DNA from: Thysanoteuthis rhombus
Lineage: Eukaryota; Mollusca; Cephalopoda; Oegopsida; Thysanoteuthidae
DNA: 64,000 bases
Reading direction: 5' to 3'
NCBI GenBank assembly: GCA_963457665.1
Contig: OY735231.1
Span: 41,021,524 to 41,085,523, forward strand
In this document: in pieces, positions 2,346 through 47,990 of the stretch
Numbering within the stretch: position 1 is the first letter of the stretch
Layout: the number at the start of each line of letters is the position of its first letter
Made by a program: the position numbers and the translations under genes
The notes under the pieces: model-generated
Databases searched by the model: none
What the model was told of the DNA's origin: nothing
What the model saw: only the letters and a program-made list of their open reading frames with translations

Positions 2346-2586
2346 ATTGTTGTTACCGTTGGGAAAAGCGAAAATGAAGTCAAAATTACATAATACCATG
2401 AGTTTGACAAAAAATGATTAGTCTTTGATAACAAAAAAAAGGAAAACTTTGGAAATTCTTTTATCAAAAGAATTGAATAAATAAGAATAAGAGACGTCAA
2501 AAAACAGGAACAAAGTGACTAATGTTGGACACACCAAAAAAAAAAACAAAACAAAAAACAATATGCTTTCGCACAAATTGTTATCC

Positions 2587-2902
2587 CTATTATTGTTCGG
2601 ACTATTCTCATCTTGGTTGCTTTTCATACAACGTTTCGGCCGTTGTACTCTACGGCCTTCATCAGTTATCATCTGGTAGGTGTGGGGGAAGTAAGGAAGC
2701 GAACCCTTTATTTAACCGATGGGGGTATTTAAACCGCACCCCCCTCTTAGCAGTAGTAGTATTTTCGAATTATTATTGGATTATGGGATTGAACCTAGAA
2801 CCAGTAGATTACTTGCAGTAATTCTGTCTGATTCTTCAACCACTACGCCATGTGTCCATGTACGAAGAACAACCAAGATGTGGATAGTCCGAACAATAAT
2901 AG
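2587..2902 (-). mobile_element. SINE-like element with tRNA-like head, inverted ends and hammerhead-like tail, copy 1
   Basis: The element is bounded by inverted repeats of about 39 bases, 2587-2625 against 2864-2902, with about four mismatches in the central 34. Read on the minus strand, it begins with a tRNA-like Pol III promoter: an A-box-like TGGCGTAGTGG region at 2829-2851 and a B-box-like GGTTCAATCCC at 2785-2795. Its 3' part carries a hammerhead-ribozyme-like core: CTGATGA (2659-2665), a 6-bp helix GGCCGT/ACGGCC (2652-2657 with 2638-2643), then GAAAC (2633-2637) and GTTGTA. That order of motifs is known from Penelope-like retroelements, so the tail may derive from one. A sister copy lies at 41571-41911 in the opposite orientation. 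The catalytic claim is inference; stem I is not clearly visible. Confidence 0.55.
2629..2680 (-). ncRNA. Hammerhead-ribozyme-like motif, copy 1
   Basis: On the minus strand the order is CTGATGA, a 6-bp stem with an 8-base loop, then GAAAC and a GTA trinucleotide that could serve as an NUH cleavage site after a two-pair stem III. The stem has one unpaired base on its 5' side. Short stem III hammerheads of this kind are known in Penelope-like elements. The same core occurs near 41847-41885. I could not find a convincing stem I, so activity is uncertain. Confidence 0.4.
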
Positions 2903-3164
2903 AGATGATAATAACACCTCATCTCAAGAATGCCTGAATGGTGTTTATAAAATGGAGTTATCGAATCCTTTGTTCATTTCCTGTTGCCTGCAGCCAGGGC
3001 AGCCGAAAGGTTCATCGGGTGGGATAAGGAAAAGATAACCCAGGGGAAACTTGTCAGTCCATATTTTTTCACAAGGATTAAGTAGCGTCAAAGTAGCGAA
3101 AGAACGATGATGGTGAAGTAAATGAAGTGGATGATGACAACGAAGCACGGGAAGAATAAAAAAG

Positions 3165-5080: not shown

Positions 5081-5725
5081 GTCATCATGATCATCAGCTT
5101 TTTAGCATCTGTCGTTGGACACATACCTTCTCAAGATTTGCTCCATTATAGGTATCATAGAACCAGTGCTTTCTAAACTTATTTATTTCGTAACGCCATC
5201 TTATATTTTGTCGGCCCCAGTTTCACATATGATCTCAGGGGATTTACGTTGTGAGCCCTCATATCCAGTGGCTGTTTACCATTCACACAGCAAGGCCAGT
5301 TCATTGCCATCTGAGTTTTCTTATGGATTCTATCATACCTTAGACTCCTGTTTTTCTTCCCTCAAATATATTGTACTGTCCCTCTAATATATTGTGATCT
5401 CTCTATGCTATGTTGAGCATGATTCCCTCGCGTGCATGTTGCATAATCCTTAGTTCAAGGATCAGTTTCCTGGTTCAGTTCAGCTCCATAGGTGATCATC
5501 GGTTATATACCTTTTTTTTTTTACTAGCGGTATAGTTATTATTCTTGAAGATTGAACCCACCCTGCCGAAGGCTTACTGGCTCAAAGGGATTTTTCGCTT
5601 GATTCCTCTTCTTTGGGGGATTTCATTGAGATTCGTTGTCCAGGGTAGATATAGTGGTCTACTTAGGATCTTAAGATTAACCATTTTCCTGAATCTTGGA
5701 TCAGGATTGGATGAGAAAATATGTT
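5033..5725 (-). mobile_element. RTE-type LINE, 3' end fragment
   Basis: On the minus strand this is the 3' portion of an RTE-like non-LTR retrotransposon. It ends in the typical GTCCAACGAC...GCTAAAA...CTGATGATG sequence followed by an (ATG)n tail, seen on the plus strand as (ATC)n at 5040-5092. The same coding region at 43.6, 46.4, 28.9 and 18 kb encodes the C-terminal block with the K-W-WAGHVAR motif of RTE-like reverse transcriptases. This copy is 5'-truncated near 5725, as is common after target-primed reverse transcription, and is interrupted by stops and frame changes. It is too diverged to encode protein. Confidence 0.75.
5039..5092. repeat. (ATC)n microsatellite
   Basis: A nearly perfect CAT/ATC trinucleotide run forms the tail of the adjoining minus-strand RTE LINE. 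RTE-clade elements commonly end in short tandem repeats of this type. Confidence 0.9.
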
Positions 5726-7434: not shown

Positions 7435-7775
7435 AATCACCGTGGTTTAGTGATGTAATGCTTACCACCAGGTCGGTAGGCCGTGGTTCAGTCAACTGCT
7501 GAATCATACCAAAAACTTCTAAGACAGTATTCAATGCCTCCCTGCTGAGCACTCAGCACAAGGACTACAATTAAGGAACCTCCCATGAGGCTAAGGGGTT
7601 ACAGCCTAATCACTTTAGATACTTCTTTCTCGTATGATTATCGAAGTTAAGCAATATCAAGACTGGTTAGTACATAGATGGGTGACCATTAGGGAATCCC
7701 AGATGCCGTAAGCATAACAAAGCTTTGACAAGCCTGGTAAGCTAGTGGTGTAAAACTAAGAACTGCCCATTCAGA
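7435..7775 (+). mobile_element. Composite SINE: tRNA-like head, linker, 5S-rRNA-like module
   Basis: The order is a tRNA-like head (TGGTTTAGTGATGTAATGC at 7442 and GTGGTTCAGTCAA near 7484), a linker with ATTCAATGCCTCCCTGCTGAGCAC, then about 120 bases that read like 5S rRNA. The 5S module starts near 7594 (GGTTACAGCC) and continues with GAAGTTAAGCAATATC, GACTGGTTAGTAC, ATAGATGGGTGACC, GGGAATCCCAGATGCCGTAAGC. A tail follows with CTTTGACAAGCCTGGTAAGC. The same order is seen in reverse at 15330-15660, so the fusion is a family structure, not a chance junction. Such 5S SINEs (SINE3 type) and 5S-tRNA chimeras are known in animals. Not a functional 5S gene: several positions differ. Confidence 0.75.
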
Positions 7776-16730: not shown

Positions 16731-17934
16731 TAGTCACTTGAATCAACGCAGGTTTTTAAATTGACTCCTTGGTACCCAGACATTTAGAGACGTAAGAAAA
16801 GCAGATCTCATATTGTGAGAAAATTTTTTAAAAAACTTTATATTATTTGGCGCGACCCGTGTCATGTAATAGTGTTATTAATTTAGATGTTTTTTTTCTT
16901 TCATTTTACGAATCTGGAAATCATTCCCATATTTGAAAATTAAAAAGAAAACATTCAAATTGGTAGCACTGGATCCCTAGCATAGGAAAATTGAAGGAAA
17001 ACATTAAAATTCACAATTTCGAAAAATTAAAATTGAAAAAAATGTCTGAAGTGGCAACACTTCGAACCAATTCTTACGGTACCTTAAATATCTGTCCCTA
17101 TTTTGCTGATATGAACCTCAGGAATTCCGTCTTTCAAAATGTTGCTGAGTTCATTCAAATGAAGGATTGTACAATTGAGGTGTCTATTGACGGAGAGGCA
17201 AACTTGCTACACATCCGGATATGTGTGGTTTTCTTTGGTACCGTAGAAGAAGGAAAGTGACAGCCTGGGCGATAGACCGTAGCCATTGGAGAACTCGATT
17301 CCACACGCATCCCAGTGCCACCATTCAGCAGCCACATACGCGTCTCTCAGCCTCAGGGACAGATCTTCCTAAATATTTTTTTTTCATTGATGTTCACATA
17401 TTTTGCAATTTAAGGAGTGGTATGCGGTTGCTGATATACGATATTTGTAAAATGTGTTTTAATATCCTGTGAAAACAATATCACAGTAATGATATTCATA
17501 TTATATTTAGGCATCATTTTTTTAAAATTTAAAACAATCCAGAAATGTGGTTGATATACGGTAAATAGTCGCCTAATTTCCTTAAAACCATTTCTCGGTT
17601 AATTCACCCCTCCTACGATAGACACATTCATTGGTTAAGCTATAACTAGATTCTGATTGGTTTCCCCTAATTTCTGTAGGCTAGAATACTAATCTCGAGT
17701 CGATATGATATCCACTGAAAAAAATTCGCTGACTAAAGTAGCATTTTGGCAGGTCATTATCTCAGGGATTCCTAAAGAGTCTATCTCTGTAAATATTAGG
17801 GCCATTATCTTGATTGGAGGAAATCAGGCGGTGAATCAATCTAGGATGATCAGCTTTTAGGTAGAACTTACCCAACTTTCAAGGAAATCCTATTACTTCT
17901 AAATAAAGGGTGTAAAGACGATGCATCATCCTGA

Positions 17935-18345
17935 CAGTAACCTAGAGGACTGAAAGATGGAACTTAATCAAAAGATTGGCCCTCAGGCTGCGAACAAAGC
18001 AACGTGCACAGTCCAGAATCAAGCTCAAAATAATACGGAAATATCGAAAGACAGCACAGTATATTAGGGAAAAAAACTGGAGTCAGATATATATAATCCA
18101 TTGAGAAACCCAAATGGTATTGTTGCAAGAATGTCTAATAACTGCTAGTTATCACGACACACAACGCGGATCCCAAGAGATCATATGCGAAAGGCCGTGA
18201 CCGACGGAAAATAAGATGGCATGACAAATTAGACAGATTCAGTAAGTATTGGCACGGTGTTCCCTATGATGAAGAGAGGTCAGACGAATCTTTTGGAAGG
18301 TCTACGTCCAATGACGGACGCTGAGGGGCTGATGATGATCTGGAT
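17935..18345 (+). mobile_element. RTE-type LINE, 3' end fragment
   Basis: The plus strand carries the C-terminal coding region of an RTE-like reverse transcriptase. It resembles K-TGV-DII-SI-KLKW-WAGHVARMS, then a TRW-DKLDRF-KYWH block, with stops and frame shifts. It ends in GAAGGTCTACGTCCAATGACGGACGCTGAGGGGCTGATGATG, the characteristic 3' end. It is 5'-truncated and non-functional. The short frame 18280-18471 on the minus strand is its antisense shadow. Confidence 0.7.
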
Positions 18346-24507: not shown

Positions 24508-25145
24508 TATAGGTTTTTGTGCAATTTTCTTCAATCTAAAATGAAAAACAAAAGAGACAGCATATTCACGCCGTCAACCTTTCCGTTGAGCACGATGCTT
24601 CCTAAAACTTAACACATCAAAATGATAATAGTAACACCGGAAAAAAACTGATTGGTTCGTGAATATCTATCCTGACAATGTCATTTACGAATAGATTTGC
24701 ATCATAAAAATATAAAAGACGCCAATACGCTTGCAGAATTCAAATGAGAATAGCTTGCAGTTATCAGACAATGTGTACAATATACAACATGTATAAATTG
24801 ACACGTAATAGGAACTTAACAAAGCTGTGATTTCATCATAGACAACTCAATGAACACATATTTCAACAAAGATTTAATCGTATGAGCCCTTTTTGTGTAT
24901 GCGGTACGAGAAACGAAAATTATGAGTATTTTCTCCGGTATTGGCCCCATTTTCCCTCGATAAGTAAGGATCTCTTCAGTCAGCTTTGTTGGTGTACCTA
25001 GGGTAGAGATGATAAACATGGAATCGAAAAAATGATGTGAATTGCTCTTGGACGGAAAGTCAGATCTAAATATTTGAGCAACCTTTTCCCCCTTTCCTCT
25101 TTTCTTTTCTTCATCGTTCTTTTTTATGTATTTCATTCTCATTTA
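24508..25145. other. Probable LINE 3' flank and non-coding DNA
   Basis: The sequence just after the stop (24508-24560) continues with TATAGGTTTTTGTGCAATTTTCTTC, which still reads like the C-terminal Y-FLCNF of the LINE in another frame. The rest is unassigned. Confidence 0.4.
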
Positions 25146-25610
25146 GCTTTTAAGAGTGATATATAAACAATAAAAGGTTTATCATCAATATATACGTAGC
25201 CAATGTTGATTTCTATCAGTGGGGCAGCTTAGCTGAAAATGTCAATCCAATTGTGCATTTTGTGATATAATTATTGATTTAAATCAGTGCTAACTGCTGT
25301 GAGAGCTTGGTGATTATGTTTCCTTCCTGGTGTCGATGACACTAGTATTTGATTAATGTCAATCCAATTGTGCATTTTGTGATATAATTATTGATTTAAA
25401 TCAGTGCTAACTGCTGTGAGAGCTCGGTGATTATGTTTCTTCCTGGTGTCGATGACACTAGTATTTAATTCTTGTTTAGTTTTTAGGAGTGATAAATAAA
25501 CAACATAAGGTTTATCTTCTATCTATAATTAGTCAATGTAGCTTTCTACCAGTGGAGCAGCTTAGCTGAAAATGTCAAGCCAATTGTGCATTTTGCGATA
25601 AAATCATATA
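25146..25610 (+). repeat. Tandem duplication: 117-bp unit twice, inside a larger repeat
   Basis: The segment 25238-25354 is repeated at 25355-25470 with only about three differences, from AATGTCAATCCAATTGTGC to GACACTAGTATTT. Outside it, 25146-25270 is repeated more distantly at 25475-25607 (GTTTATC, AGCAGCTTAGCTGAAAATGTCAA-CCAATTGTGCATTTTG). So an older repeat of about 330 bp spacing contains a young 117-bp duplication. No coding capacity. Confidence 0.85.
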
Positions 25611-28907: not shown

Positions 28908-28965
<58 letters not shown>

Positions 28966-29510
28966 GTCGTTTATCGTTTGTAGTTGGATATAGATCCTCC
29001 CCAGGATTTGACAGACCTCCCCATCGTGGGCATCGCAGAGCCAATATTTTCTGAACCCTCTAGTCCGTTGCACCATCTCATATTCTGCTGGCCTTGATTC
29101 TGCATTTGATCTCAAAGGATCCATGTTTTGAGTCGTAATGTCTGTTGGTTGTCTGACATTCTTGCAACATGATCAACCCATTGCCATCTAAGTTTCCAAA
29201 TAGATTCTATGATGTTTCTTTCCTAATATACTGTGCTGTCTTGTGATATCTCCATGTGAGGTTGAACATGATTCTTTCATGTGCACGTTGTACGTTTTTA
29301 GAGTCAATCTCTTGGTAAGGTTCCATGTTTCAGCTCTCTATGTGACTATCGGGGGTGCACTGCTTGTTTACCCATCTTTTCATGATCGATGGGATTATCT
29401 TGTTCTTGGAGGTTGAGCTTGCTCTACCGAAAGCTTGCCATTCTTGAGTAAAGCTTTGCTCAATTTCTCCTTCTTTTGAAGATTTCAGGGAGATTCGTTG
29501 CTGGACGTTT
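28908..29510 (-). mobile_element. RTE-type LINE, 3' end fragment
   Basis: On the minus strand this is the same 3' region as at 5.0, 43.6 and 46.4 kb, ending in an (ATG)n tail (plus-strand ATC at 28912-28965). The GTGGGCATCGCAGAGCCAATATTTTCTGAA block corresponds to the coding stretch before the 3' end, and CATTGCCATCTAAGTTT corresponds to the KLKWQW motif in antisense. It is truncated near 29510, about 600 bp from its 3' end, and is not translatable through its length. Confidence 0.75.
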
Positions 29511-41110: not shown

Positions 41111-41570
41111 CAAATGTAATACATTATACTTCCAGCTTCAATTTTCAGAGGGAAGCGCTGTCAAACGTAATTGTCATTCAATGAAGCCTTTATGCAGTTG
41201 ATATGAATTCGTAACAGATTTAGTCAATCACCAAGCAAAGTTGATTATTATACTACTAGCATAGAACCTGCCAAAAATAATCAGTTAAAAATAACGAGTA
41301 ACATTTTTGCTGTATTGTAAAAAACAATAAATAAACACTATTTGGATCTTTGGTAAAATTCGAACGAAAAGATACTGAGAAAAAGCAGCAACCATGTCAG
41401 TTTCAGTGTTTGTGTTGTTTTTTTGTCTTTTTTTCTGTTTTACATGTTTTTAGATTTGCAGTGATAAAAGGATAAATATGTTACTGATTTTTACCTAGAA
41501 AAAGTTCATATTCGAGGTTGCATTTCACTCGAGTAAATACGATGATAAATAGTAAAAAGTAAATCTCTGA

Positions 41571-41911
41571 ATTTTTTAGATGAGGTATTTTTATTATTTC
41601 TATTAATATTCGGACTATCCCCATCTTGTTTTGTTTTTCATACAACGTTTTGGCTATATGGACACGTAGTGTAGTGGTTACAGATTAAGACAAAATTACT
41701 GCAAGTAATCTGATGATTCTAGGTTCAATCTCTGTGTGAGACAATAAAATTTTACTAATGCTAAGAGGGGAGTGCGGTTAATATACCCCTGTCGGTTATA
41801 AAAAGGTTCGGTTCGTTACTTCCCTGCACCTACCAGATGATACCTGATGAGTGCCGTAGAGTGCAACGGCCGAAACGTTGTGTGAAAAACAACCAAGATG
41901 AGGATAGTCAA
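41571..41911 (+). mobile_element. SINE-like element with tRNA-like head, inverted ends and hammerhead-like tail, copy 2
   Basis: This is the sister of the 2587-2902 element, in the opposite orientation. The 5' end (CGGACTATCCCCATCTTG...ATACAACGTTTTGG) is the inverse of the 3' end (CCGAAACGTTGTGTG...CAAGATGAGGATAGTC). Between them are a tRNA-like head (GTAGTGTAGTGGTTACAGATT, then CTAGGTTCAATCTC) and a body with a GAGTGCGGTTAATATACCCC segment. The tail holds the hammerhead-like core CTGATGAG, GCCGT, ACGGC and CGAAAC. A 23-bp direct repeat flanks it (41548-41570 and 41912-41934, two mismatches), which is good evidence of a real, whole insertion about 340 bp long. Penelope-like elements are the likely source of the tail. 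Confidence 0.65.
41848..41885 (+). ncRNA. Hammerhead-ribozyme-like motif, copy 2
   Basis: CTGATGAG is followed by a 5-bp helix GCCGT/ACGGC enclosing an 8-base loop, then CGAAAC and GTTGTG. The core matches the 2.6-kb copy apart from a few changes, and the helix is preserved. The trinucleotide after the short stem III is GTG here, not GTA as in the other copy. Confidence 0.4.
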
Positions 41912-42934
41912 AATAGTAAAAAGTAATTCTTTGATATCAAATTATTTTTAAAAATGTAAGTGTAATCTTCCTGAATCTATTCGTAAGTTGCTATCAAAGT
42001 GATAATCTTTTCCATTGCATATTTTCGTTTTTTGTATTTTTCATAATGAGATAAGTCTGTTTATCTACTTTCACTGATTTGTTACTTACTTTCCTCTACG
42101 CTACAAAATAAAAACAGAACACAACTTTTCCTTTACGACATTTTTGTAATAGCGAAAAAGTGACAAAGCAAAATTTAGGAAAATAGAGACTACGTTTTTC
42201 AAAATTCTTTTAAAACACACACTAAAAAATAGTTACAGTCAAAAAAAAAGACCATTGTTCGAAGTGATAGGTAAGAGGCATTTTATCAGCAAGATTGTTA
42301 TATTCAAGTGGAATGATTCAAGAAAATCAAATGTTTCAATTTTGAATACGGTAAAGTCCAGGGACTCAAATTTGAAATTCCTAATGTCGACGAGCCAGAT
42401 CTTTTATGAAATGAATATTGTCTTTAAAAGTCTGGTGACTTCGCATAAGTTTCTCGTTTAGCCAACTCATGTGTAAAATCATCCAGTAGCTTCACCATTA
42501 CAGATCTATGGATCTAGGTAATGTTTTTAATTAAAGGCAAACTCAGCGTTGTCAGAATTATATTTGGACGACAATAGACATAAGCAACTTAATTCAGATG
42601 TCTAGTATCGACAGACTCTCGTAATAATTGACTTCTAACAATTCCCTCTAAGTCTGCAATTGTATATACTAGGGAAAAATTAGTTCAAAGGCCTGTAGAT
42701 TCTTTTTTTTTTCTTACGAAAGTCACCTTTTCTGATCCCTCTCATAAAATCAAACCAAACAATAGATTTCAGATTGCAAAAAATTGTTTGTTTTTTTTAT
42801 ACAAAACCGAACTGTGACTCCATTATGTCTGTGAGAGAATGACATCCAATGCATTATGCATATCAGAAGCATTCTGTTCATCTATCAATTCCATTCAGAT
42901 GCAAAAATGTTTCTTTTTAGAGAACAAAGTTTAA

Positions 42935-43569: not shown

Positions 43570-44462
43570 TTCTTATCACCATCATCGCCATCAGTCTTTT
43601 AAAGTCCGTCGTTGGACACAGGCTGTCCCCAAGATTTGCCTCAATTCTCTATCATGGGTGTCGCGGAGCTAGTATTTCCTGAATCTGTCCAGTTTATCTC
43701 TCCATCTTGTGTTCTGTTGGCTTCGATTTCTTATGTAATCGGTGGAGATCCATGTTGTGAGACGTGATGTCCACCGTTTGTCTTTCATCCTTGCAACATG
43801 GCCTGCCCATTGCCATTTGAGTTTTTTAATAGTTTCTATGATGTCACAGACACCCGTTTTCTTCCTTATATACTTGCTGTCTTGTGGTCTCTCCATGTAA
43901 GGTTGAGCATGATTGTCTCATGCGCACGTTGCATACTTCTCAGCTTGCAGGTCTGTCTCTTGCTAGGTTCCATGTTTCAGCTCCATAAGTGACTATCGAG
44001 AGAATGCATTAGTTGTACACTCTTTTAAGGATTTTTGGGATCATCTGGTTCTTGAAAGTTGAGTCTGCTCTGCCGAAGGCTTGCCATCCCAAAGTGATTG
44101 TTCGCTCGATTTCCTCCTCTTTTGAGGGTCTCATGGAGATTCGTTGTCCTAGGGAGATGTAGCGGTCTACCTTGCATCTTCTATCCTGACGGTTATGTTC
44201 TTATTCTCAACATGGGTATTGCACATTATTTTCGTTTTACTGAAGTTCATTTTTTGCTTTCTTTGTTTAGATCATCTAGCATTAGTTGGAGGTCGTATAG
44301 GTTCTCTGCGAAAAGGACGATGTCGTTTGCAAATATAAGGTTGCTCAAGTATTCGCCGTCTATTTTGATTCCTCCATGTTCCCAGTCCATGTTCTGGAAG
44401 ATCATCTCAAGGCAGGTTGTAAAGAGTTCGGGTGAGCTGGTATCACCTTGTCTTGAATAAAA
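43570..44462 (-). mobile_element. RTE-type LINE, 3' end with partial reverse transcriptase
   Basis: On the minus strand, 44462 to about 43570 runs from the reverse transcriptase GVRQGDT-SP motif (antisense at about 44436-44459) to the 3' end. The catalytic motif reads FANDIVLFAE near 44300-44330, where the first Asp of FADD is replaced by Asn. A second open segment at 43669-43896 reads K-TGVCDIIETIKKLKWQWAGHVARMKDKRWT and TRWRDKLDRFRKY, the diagnostic C-terminus of RTE/BovB-like enzymes. It ends at GTCCAACGACGGAC...TAAAAGACTGATGG. The catalytic change, truncation and interruptions make it inactive. Plus-strand frames here are shadows. Confidence 0.8.
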
Positions 44463-46230: not shown

Positions 46231-46369
46231 TTTTCAATTGGCTCTCATTACACCCCCCTCTAATTAGGATAACTTTCTTATTTTGTAAGGAATGCTGTTT
46301 ATCTCTCTGTAATCACTAACCCTTCGGCTCATTTGATTCTTTGAAATATTTCTACCGTTTTTGGAAACT

Positions 46370-47990
46370 GCAACCAATTTCATCCTCCTCATAATCAGCT
46401 TTTAAGTGTAGGTCGTTGGACATAGACCTTTCTCAAGATTCACTGGTTCTCTCTATCATGGGTGCGTGGGGGAAAGTACTTTTCAAATTTGTTAAGCTCT
46501 TCAGCTATATTACTTTAGTCGGTCACAATTTCATATATGATCTCTTGGGATCGATGAAAGAGTCAGTTGTCTGACATTCTTGCAAAATGTCCAGCCCATT
46601 GCGATTTGAGTTTTCTGATTGTTTCTATGATATCTCAGATTCCTGACTTTTGACTAATGAACTGTGCTGTCTTGTGATCTTTCCCTGCGAAGTTCAGCAT
46701 GATTCTTTCATGTGCACGTTGCATGGTTGTCAGTTTGAGGGTTAGTCTTCCGTTTAAGTTTCATAGCTGGATTTTTTTGTTCTTGAAAGTCGGAGATGCT
46801 CAACTGAAAATTTTACAATCTAGTGTGATTCTTCATTTGATTTGTTTTCCTTTTGGGGATTTCCTTTTTAGCATTTTTCGGAGATCATGGAGGTTCTTGG
46901 CAAAGAAGACGATGTCGTCTGCTAATATGAGGTTACTTAGGTATTCACTGTCTATTCTGAGTCCTTGCTGTTCTTAGTCTTGGTTTCGAAAGATCATCTG
47001 AAGACAGGCTGTGAAGAGTTAGGGTGAGCTGGTATCACCTTGTCTCACTCCTTTTACTTTTTAAATTGAGTCTTTACGTAGCCTGATAGAGGAACTGCTG
47101 TGTCAGTAGATTTGTTGCAGTACTATGACATATACGGGACCTACACAATGTACTATTACGTCAATGACTTCCCCTGAGTCGGAAGCTTTTTTTTTAAAAG
47201 TCGACTAATGCTACAGGAAGTGGCAATCTATATTTTGTTGCTTTCTTTTTTAATTAGTTAATTGAATAGAGATGGTCGGTGGTTGAGTTGCTTTTTCTAA
47301 AGCCAGCTTGTTTCCGTGGTTGTTTTTCATCTGGTGTTTTGATAATTCGTTTGGGGATCACTGTGGTAAAGAGGTTGTCAATGTTGTTGCGTGGGCTTAT
47401 TGGCCTGTACTTGTTGAGGTCTTCCGGATTTCTTATTTCATATCACAGCATTACCGTATTCCAGTCCTCTGGTAATTTACTTTGTTTGAAGCATAAGTTG
47501 AAAAAAAATGACTACTCTCTTAGTGATGACTTTTCCAACTTTTTTGTCGGTTGCTGGTCATGTTATCGGGGCCTAGGGTCTTTCTTTTCTATCTTTAATG
47601 ACTCCCTTCACGTCCTGTGAAGTAACTTATTACACTCGGCTTGTATTTCCTGTCCATTTCCATGTCTTTTCTTTGTTGGAATAGACGTTTCTGTAAAATT
47701 CTTTGGCCCGCTCGACAATTCGGTCCCTGTCCGTTGTTAAGTTTTCATTTCCTTCGAGCACATTAGTTATTAGCTTCCTTTCCGTACCATGAGATTTAAA
47801 ATAGTTCTGAATCCTGTACCTTTCCCAAAAATGCTTTCAAAAAACACGTTTAGCTGACCAGCTGTCCATTTGTGCGTCTAGCTGATGTATAATGTCTTTT
47901 GAAAGTCAGGCCAACTTCATGCAACTGATTCCGTAGACTTTTGAGCATACGACTGCCCTGGCGTCTCTCAGGCTACAGTTCGGTAATTCT
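46370..47990 (-). mobile_element. RTE-type LINE, longest copy in the window
   Basis: About 1.6 kb on the minus strand. From 5' to 3' it covers the region upstream of the reverse transcriptase core, the core itself and the 3' end. In antisense, 47025-47050 gives GVRQGDTSSP and 46905-46935 gives LILADDIVFFA, with both catalytic Asp present. The 3' end near 46385 keeps GTCCAACGACC-ACTTAAAAGCTGATTATG. Around 46750-46800 the copy lacks part of the sequence seen at 43.6-44.4 kb, so it has an internal deletion. Many stops and frame changes; not functional. The endonuclease domain is not recognisable, so the element is 5'-truncated. Confidence 0.75.

What the first reader, a model, noticed from the sequence alone, without database searches (positions are those of the whole stretch)
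41548..41934. Whole tRNA-headed element with hammerhead-like tail, flanked by a 23-bp target duplication
The 341-bp insert sits between two 23-base direct repeats with two mismatches. It carries a tRNA-like promoter, inverted ends of about 40 bases, and CTGATGA / helix / CGAAAC in hammerhead order. Combining a Pol III head with a Penelope-like ribozyme tail and inverted termini is not a textbook SINE layout, and a sister copy lies at 2.6 kb.
Basis: partly seen in the sequence, partly recalled or inferred. Interest (0 to 1): 0.75.

Follow-up and report, generated by a model that had tools for sequence, protein, structure and literature searches.

The report
Penelope-driven SINE with self-made inverted cap
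A short tRNA-like jumping element in this genome appears to be copied by a Penelope-type retrotransposon rather than by the usual LINE, and each insertion seems to be built from both sides at once, leaving a fresh inverted cap that records how the copying worked.

Summary
The insert is real and belongs to a large family in a 2.73-Gb genome (species unnamed). It is a short element with a tRNA-like Pol III promoter; its body, hammerhead and 3' end are the pseudo-LTR plus ORF start of a Penelope-like element (PLE) of the same genome. One PLE copy (L068: 865-codon frame, RT, GIY-YIG-like C-terminus) carries the same tRNA-like promoter in its pLTR.

The inverted end is not an inherited terminal repeat. 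Over 98 copies the outer ends are fixed, but the join between inverted cap and tRNA head differs (74 different joins of 84). The PLE "tail" lies on one end only: cap 60, other end 22, both 0, neither 2 (decayed) of 84; among 67 copies with a convincing target duplication, 67 carry exactly one. A subfamily marker agrees between cap and opposite arm in 75 of 79.

This fits two-sided target-primed reverse transcription: each target strand primes at one of two internal RNA start sites (as seen in vitro for an Anolis PLE), probably on one RNA, followed by a template switch.

The parts
41547..41562 (.). target-site duplication, left copy (AAATAGTAAAAAGTAA)
   Evidence: exact 16-nt match to 41911-41926; duplications at these boundaries in 67 of 98 copies against 2 of 300 mismatched pairs
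41563..41654 (-). inverted cap: reverse complement of the element's 3' part, from the distal start site (tail, about 41563-41590) inward to hammerhead stem II
   Evidence: alignment to the reverse complement of the family reference, ref 223-318; inner end differs between copies
41655..41910 (+). main arm: Pol III-type unit, i.e. PLE pLTR plus start of the PLE ORF, ending at the proximal start site
   Evidence: alignment to the family reference; same unit follows the EN-coding end of PLE copies. The exact base of the cap/arm join is ambiguous within 41650-41657
41667..41677 (+). A box TAGTGTAGTGG
   Evidence: sequence; consensus recalled
41722..41732 (+). B box GGTTCAATCTC (one mismatch; family GGTTCAATCCC)
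   Evidence: sequence; 88-100% conserved per site over 98 copies
41840..41883 (+). PLE-type minimal hammerhead: stem I AUAC/GUGU, CUGAUGA, stem II, GAAAC, no helix III; predicted cut after 41879 (GUU^)
   Evidence: sequence; over 98 copies stem I is paired in 97.9% of cells (the row labelled shift 1 is the right register) and stem II in 94%, with only 4 double-change cells; no activity test
41837..41910 (+). stretch derived from the start of the PLE ORF (MIPDE...; second possible ATG has become GTG in this copy)
   Evidence: the same stretch opens the 865-codon frame of L068
41911..41926 (.). target-site duplication, right copy
2577..2861 (-). sister copy, main arm
2859..2931 (-). sister copy, inverted cap; its tail part is diverged and it passed no tail threshold

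Best explanation
The element is a non-autonomous, SINE-like element of a Penelope-like element (PLE). The PLE's pseudo-LTR contains an internal tRNA-like Pol III promoter, a minimal hammerhead and the start of the PLE ORF with its two reverse-transcription start sites. Transcription from the promoter gives a short RNA that begins near the tRNA-like head and runs through the start sites; since synthesis starts inside the RNA, no defined 3' end or terminator is needed. The PLE protein cuts both strands of an A/T-rich target. Each freed target 3' end primes reverse transcription of that RNA, one at the distal and one at the proximal site. One cDNA reaches the RNA's 5' end; the other stops part-way and switches onto the end of the first cDNA, often at a 2-3 nt match, completing the second strand. 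The part-way cDNA stays behind as the inverted cap, so the cap is made anew at each insertion. Shown by sequence: PLE identity of the unit, fixed outer ends, variable joins, exactly one tail, target duplications, clustered 5' ends. Inferred: Pol III transcription, a single RNA molecule, protein in trans, order of events.
For: PLE identity: L048 encodes the GIY-YIG-like end of a PLE directly upstream of the unit; L068 is a PLE with 865-codon frame, RT (RVT_1 E 2.4e-9), 3' UTR, then the unit, and duplication ACATTGCAGTTAT; 9 of 9 readable PLE right ends match the unit, B box in 9 of 9, A box pattern in 7 of 9. Its C-terminus aligns with L035 (44% over 52 aa, E 1e-9), and L035 passes Pfam's GIY-YIG cut-off. 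One tail: 84 caps: cap only 60, other end only 22, both 0, neither 2; with duplication score 9 or more: 48 cap, 17 other end, 2 capless with tail, i.e. 67 of 67; not counting the 30 loci selected with a capped query: 30 and 22 of 54; PLE copies with both ends read: 5 of 5. Cap made anew: 74 different joins of 84 (51 of 54 in the less selected set); exact joint overlap of 2 nt or more in 41 of 82 joins against 17% after re-pairing; extra bits between cap and arm in 22 of 82, some of them further inverted pieces of the same RNA (L075, L080; L030). Same RNA source: marker site 270 agrees in 75 of 79, site 260 in 62 of 75; rare variants shared by cap and own arm 18 of 204 against 5% re-paired. 5' end: 85 of 98 arms begin at ref -7 to 20, ahead of the A box at ref 19. 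No TTTT after the B box in the reference; in 3 of 98 copies. Precedent in vitro: an Anolis PLE cuts and extends both strands and starts at two adjacent internal sites that bound the tail (PMC11167929, parts 1-3 of 4 read).
Against: Pfam does not report GIY-YIG in L068 itself (E up to 1). tRNA likeness is weak: Rfam tRNA 25.2 bits, below its 29-bit gathering score; ARAGORN only with relaxed settings on the consensus head, none in the window. The hammerhead is not more conserved than the rest of the unit and shows little covariation. Left ends of 10 of 98 loci were not resolved (6 without interpretable left end, 4 running into PLE 3' UTR). Marker agreement may partly reflect one dominant source subfamily at a time instead of one RNA molecule; site 260 disagrees in 13 of 75. 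The in vitro PLE study saw no difference in start site between strands, so it does not itself show the one-tail rule.
Confidence: 0.8

Rival explanations
1. Ordinary LINE-mobilised SINE that happened to pick up PLE sequence.
For: tRNA-like head, internal A and B boxes, 12-16 bp target duplications, short length.
Against: The outer ends are the PLE's two start sites, the tail appears once per insertion, and PLE copies end in the same way. A LINE would not be expected to start inside a PLE ORF segment on both sides. A LINE with this 3' end was not searched for.
Confidence: 0.05
2. The copies are just 5'-truncated PLEs (solo pLTRs) made from PLE mRNA, with no separate Pol III transcript.
For: The unit is part of the PLE; 11 of 98 arms continue upstream into PLE 3' UTR.
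Against: 85 of 98 arms begin within ref -7 to 20, next to the promoter; random truncation should spread starts over the PLE. The search queries required sequence from about ref 11-20 on but nothing forced starts to lie just before it. No transcript data.
Confidence: 0.12
3. Inherited terminal inverted repeats of a MITE-like DNA transposon, later eroded by palindrome instability.
For: Inverted ends of 40-60 bp and target duplications.
Against: Outer ends differ by the tail, present on one side only; 74 different joins of 84; cap lengths from 16 to over 200 nt; capless copies with duplication (L047, L049).
Confidence: 0.02
4. Snap-back self-priming: the inverted part is made by cDNA folding back or by priming on an antisense transcript, as favoured for bdelloid PLE palindromes (PMC3846280, passages).
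For: Near-palindromic join in the PLE copy L068 and a fold-back-like piece in L080.
Against: Caps are anchored at the outer end and free at the inner end; in 84 capped copies the outer cap piece ends at ref 54 or beyond while arms begin at ref 1-27, so cap and arm are not continuous palindromes.
Confidence: 0.06
5. Two-sided priming as in the main explanation, but from two RNA molecules bound by an asymmetric protein dimer rather than one RNA.
For: A PLE protein dimer is predicted in PMC11167929 (read); marker disagreements exist (4 of 79 at site 270, 13 of 75 at site 260).
Against: Independent choice of start site predicts many two-tail and no-tail copies (0 and 2 of 84 seen); marker agreement is high.
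Confidence: 0.35

Closest known systems
Canonical EN+ Penelope-like elements (Penelope/Poseidon; A. vaga Pen2a; Anolis PAc)
   Same: pLTR containing the ORF start, inverted pLTR at the 5' side, 30-odd-nt tail, hammerhead at the ORF start, target duplication, RT with GIY-YIG-like domain (PMC3846280 passages; PMC11167929)
   Different: here the pLTR carries a tRNA-like Pol III promoter and gives rise to a short element of its own; the tail, described there as optional, is found exactly once in each fully bounded insertion examined here
SMalpha / Sjalpha SINE-like elements of schistosomes
   Same: tRNA sequence plus hammerhead in a short mobile repeat (PMC8490949 and PMC4918200 passages)
   Different: those carry a type I hammerhead and the passages seen name no mobilising partner; inverted cap and one-tail rule not mentioned in the passages seen. 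No sequence comparison was made
Metazoan non-LTR retrozymes
   Same: short, non-coding, hammerhead-bearing; PLEs proposed as a strong candidate for their mobilisation (PMC7229834 passages)
   Different: retrozymes are tandem, give circular RNAs and have canonical type I hammerheads; this unit is single with a minimal hammerhead, and its arm starts upstream of the hammerhead, so the template was not cut there
L1 twin priming
   Same: two primers at one target give an inverted 5' part (seen as abstracts in the listing; otherwise recalled)
   Different: in twin priming the inverted part is an upstream segment of the RNA; here it repeats the same 3' region as the arm, from a second fixed start site

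Membership tests
Penelope-like element (for the partner L068) | reverse transcriptase in a single long ORF | tested here: met
   865-codon open frame; RVT_1 E 2.4e-9; weak group II intron-like and telomerase RT matches
Penelope-like element (for the partner L068) | C-terminal GIY-YIG endonuclease | tested here: inconclusive
   Pfam does not report it in L068 at E up to 1; but 44% identity over 52 aa to L035, which passes the Pfam cut-off
Penelope-like element (for the partner L068) | pLTR including the ORF start, inverted pLTR at the 5' side, tail, target duplication | tested here: met
SINE | short, non-coding, many dispersed copies with target duplications | tested here: met
   3906 first-look candidates, 40 scored; duplications 67 of 98
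SINE | internal Pol III promoter | tested here: met
   A and B box sequences and clustered arm starts; transcription itself not tested
SINE | mobilised by a LINE (usual definition) | tested here: not met
   3' part and both end types match a PLE; so 'works like a SINE, driven by a PLE'. No LINE search was made
Hammerhead ribozyme | score by Rfam hammerhead models | tested here: not met
Hammerhead ribozyme | conserved core with stems I and II, minimal PLE type without helix III | tested here: met
   (stem I 97.9%, stem II 94% paired; little covariation)
Hammerhead ribozyme | self-cleavage | not testable with these tools
   no bench data
Retrozyme | circular RNA cut out by hammerheads, tandem copies | tested here: inconclusive
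   arms extend upstream of the predicted cut site in the 98 copies tabulated, arguing against a cut template; RNA not examined; the queries selected copies with this upstream part
MITE / TIR DNA transposon | inherited terminal inverted repeats | tested here: not met
   74 different inner joins of 84

The most novel reading that the evidence does not exclude
A class of SINEs whose engine is a Penelope-like element, and a PLE integration rule read from them: each insertion uses one RNA, two target primers and both internal start sites exactly once, then a template switch from RNA to the opposite cDNA makes the second strand; the inverted cap is the discarded start of that second strand.
Probability: 0.5. 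Interest if true: 0.88.

Novelty: new variant of a known kind. Interest (0 to 1): 0.78.

Why it matters
SINEs are normally described as LINE parasites; here the partner appears to be a PLE. How PLEs integrate is open: published work shows both strands extended from two internal sites in vitro and describes the tail as optional and the inverted pLTR as possibly self-primed (PMC11167929, PMC3846280). A short element with many independent copies gives statistics that long PLEs rarely do: one tail per bounded insertion, joins made anew, same-source markers on both sides. That turns the mechanism into a direct bench test with marked RNAs. It also explains how a Pol III unit without terminator or fixed 3' end can be mobile: synthesis starts inside the RNA.

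Tried and rejected
Self-priming, inherited TIRs, plain truncation and LINE mobilisation were considered and are ranked as rivals. Rfam hammerhead models: no match in the window, in 41500-42000, or in L020, L057, L068; the miRNA-model hits on L068 fall on the palindrome or are below gathering and were not used. Pfam GIY-YIG search over the genome gave 7 loci; L031 looks like the host gene SLX1 (my reading of the translation), and only L035 was used further. A test of whether cap ends pile up at the hammerhead cut site was not made formally. Cap lengths do not differ between tail-on-cap and tail-on-arm copies (28 and 22 copies, Mann-Whitney p 0.46). My first microhomology count (mean 2.17) allowed mismatches; the exact recount is lower (mean 1.50; 4 nt or more in 5 of 82 against 0.9%) and is the one I use. 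In one search stem I was first written one base off; the shift-1 row is the correct register, and the cut-site number printed is one base low for the same reason. I first counted marker site 270 as 75 of 77; with two third-base cases it is 75 of 79. Statement that PLE-driven SINEs were not found in print rests on ten searches of an open-licence library, which lacks most subscription papers; PMC8557442, PMC4209133 and PMC5785218 were not held.

Full report
Observation. The window holds a 348-bp insert (41563-41910) between 16-bp duplications, with a tRNA-like promoter, inverted ends and a hammerhead-like order of motifs. The genome is 2.73 Gb in 514 contigs, species unnamed. A search with the insert scored 40 of 3906 first-look candidates, so copy numbers are lower bounds.

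Sample. I tabulated 98 loci: 30 found with the whole insert (L001-L030), 27 found with the core only (after dropping L038, L052 and L056 as repeats of earlier loci), 40 fetched from the rows, and the sister copy in the window. The first 30 were selected with a query holding a cap, so I also give figures without them. One further listed row and nine were not fetched, except one of the nine that one search listed too (L080).

Anatomy. In the sense of the tRNA-like head, each typical copy reads: target duplication, inverted cap, arm, target duplication. The arm runs from the head (A box at reference 19, B box at 74) through a body and a hammerhead (core from 198) into a coding-like stretch that ends near reference 282 or, with the tail, near 313-320. 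The cap is the reverse complement of the same 3' part.

Partner. L048 has, directly upstream of the arm, an open frame ending in a GIY-YIG-like PLE C-terminus. A protein search with it scored 150 of 6062 candidates. L068 is a PLE copy with an 865-codon frame that opens inside the hammerhead, contains an RVT_1 domain (E 2.4e-9), ends in the same C-terminus, and is followed by the 3' UTR and the complete tRNA-headed unit. Its right end is the proximal site, its left end an inverted cap with tail, and its duplication is ACATTGCAGTTAT. Of ten further PLE-hit loci examined, nine had a readable right end, and all nine match the unit; the B box pattern is in nine of nine, the A box pattern in seven of nine. 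So the promoter sits in the PLE's own pLTR. The stretch at the arm's end is the start of the PLE ORF.

One tail. A 30-odd-nt extension, known from PLEs as the tail, can lie at the outer end of the cap or of the arm. Of 84 copies with a measured cap, 60 have it on the cap only, 22 on the arm only, none on both and 2 on neither (Fisher p 2e-20 for the 82). The two are L094, whose right end keeps part of the tail, and the diverged sister copy in the window. Of the 14 others, L069 and L081 have a cap of only tail sequence, L047 and L049 have no cap but a tail and duplication, four (L082, L098, L099, L103) run into PLE 3' UTR and their left ends were not reached, and six (L053, L054, L063, L091, L095, L106) have no interpretable left end. 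Among the 67 copies with a duplication score of at least 9, 67 have exactly one tail (48 cap, 17 arm with cap, 2 capless). Without the first 30 loci: 30 cap, 22 arm, 2 neither of 54. Of the 11 PLE-hit loci looked at (L068 and ten pairs), five had both ends read; all five carry one tail (L068, L109, L119, L123 on the cap, L125 on the right).

Cap made anew. The pair of cap inner end and arm start takes 74 values in 84 copies, and 51 in 54 without the first 30. At 82 joins an exact overlap of two or more bases occurs in 41, against 17% after re-pairing ends at random. In 22 of 82, extra bases lie between; in L075 and L080 these include a further inverted piece of the same RNA, in L030 an inverted piece around the B box, in L040 a run of A. 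The cap lies upstream of the promoter, so it would not be in the RNA and cannot be inherited by that route.

Source of both sides. At marker site 270 cap and arm agree in 75 of 79 copies with letters on both sides (two A/T disagreements, two with a third base); at site 260 in 62 of 75. Overall difference between cap and own arm is 7.5%, against 8.9% (lowest of 200 re-pairings 8.2%) for re-paired ones. This favours one RNA or one source locus; a single dominant source at a time could mimic it in part.

5' end of the arm. Mapped on the PLE, 85 of 98 arms begin at reference -7 to 20, 11 extend at least 9 nt into PLE 3' UTR, 2 begin later. This fits a transcript starting just ahead of the A box. 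Two PLE copies begin their sense strand near reference 178-184 instead (L068, L109), as does a small insert without PLE body (L127), suggesting a second RNA start for the PLE. The reference has no TTTT after the B box; with internal start sites none is needed.

Mechanism. For a PLE of Anolis, published in vitro work shows cutting and extension of both strands, and reverse transcription starting at two adjacent internal sites that bound the tail (PMC11167929, parts 1-3 of 4). For rotifer PLEs the inverted pLTR and tail are described, with self-priming favoured as an explanation (PMC3846280 passages). The present copies show each site used once per insertion and caps anchored outside, free inside. 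That fits two target primers and a switch from RNA to the opposite cDNA, and speaks against fold-back. Whether one RNA or two serve both primers is not settled.

Hammerhead. The core is the PLE-type minimal form without helix III: stem I AUAC/GUAU, stem II GGCCGU/ACGGCC. It is well paired but no better conserved than its surroundings, with 4 double-change cells. Arms reach far upstream of the cut site in these copies, so their templates were uncut; the cited in vitro work found cutting dispensable for insertion. Rfam models do not report it.

Known and new. PLE structure, PLE hammerheads, and SINE-like elements with tRNA and hammerhead in schistosomes are known. PLE-driven mobilisation of short hammerhead elements has been proposed (PMC7229834 passages). 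In ten searches of the held library I found no report of a Pol III promoter in a PLE pLTR, of a SINE with a PLE partner shown by sequence, or of the one-tail rule; listings and passages only were seen for most papers. I therefore call it a new variant of a known kind.

Noticed in passing
window 7597-7714 (+): 5S rRNA-like sequence, 44.2 bits, above the Rfam gathering score; gene or 5S-derived repeat not decided.
   Followed up: no
L068, L109, L127: Sense strands begin near reference 178-184, just before the hammerhead, unlike the tRNA-headed arms; possibly the start of the PLE's own mRNA.
   Followed up: partly
L012, L018, L043: Extra direct repeats of the tail-to-stem segment outside the cap or arm, as in partial tandems.
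   Followed up: no
L040, cap/arm join: A run of A lies between cap and arm.
   Followed up: no
window 5083-5672, 17816-18319, 28947-29500, 43575-44180, 46366-46764: Another dispersed repeat family, 65-72% alike over several hundred bases.
   Followed up: no
window 25128-25607: Tandemly repeated block, 117-bp stretches 97% alike.
   Followed up: no
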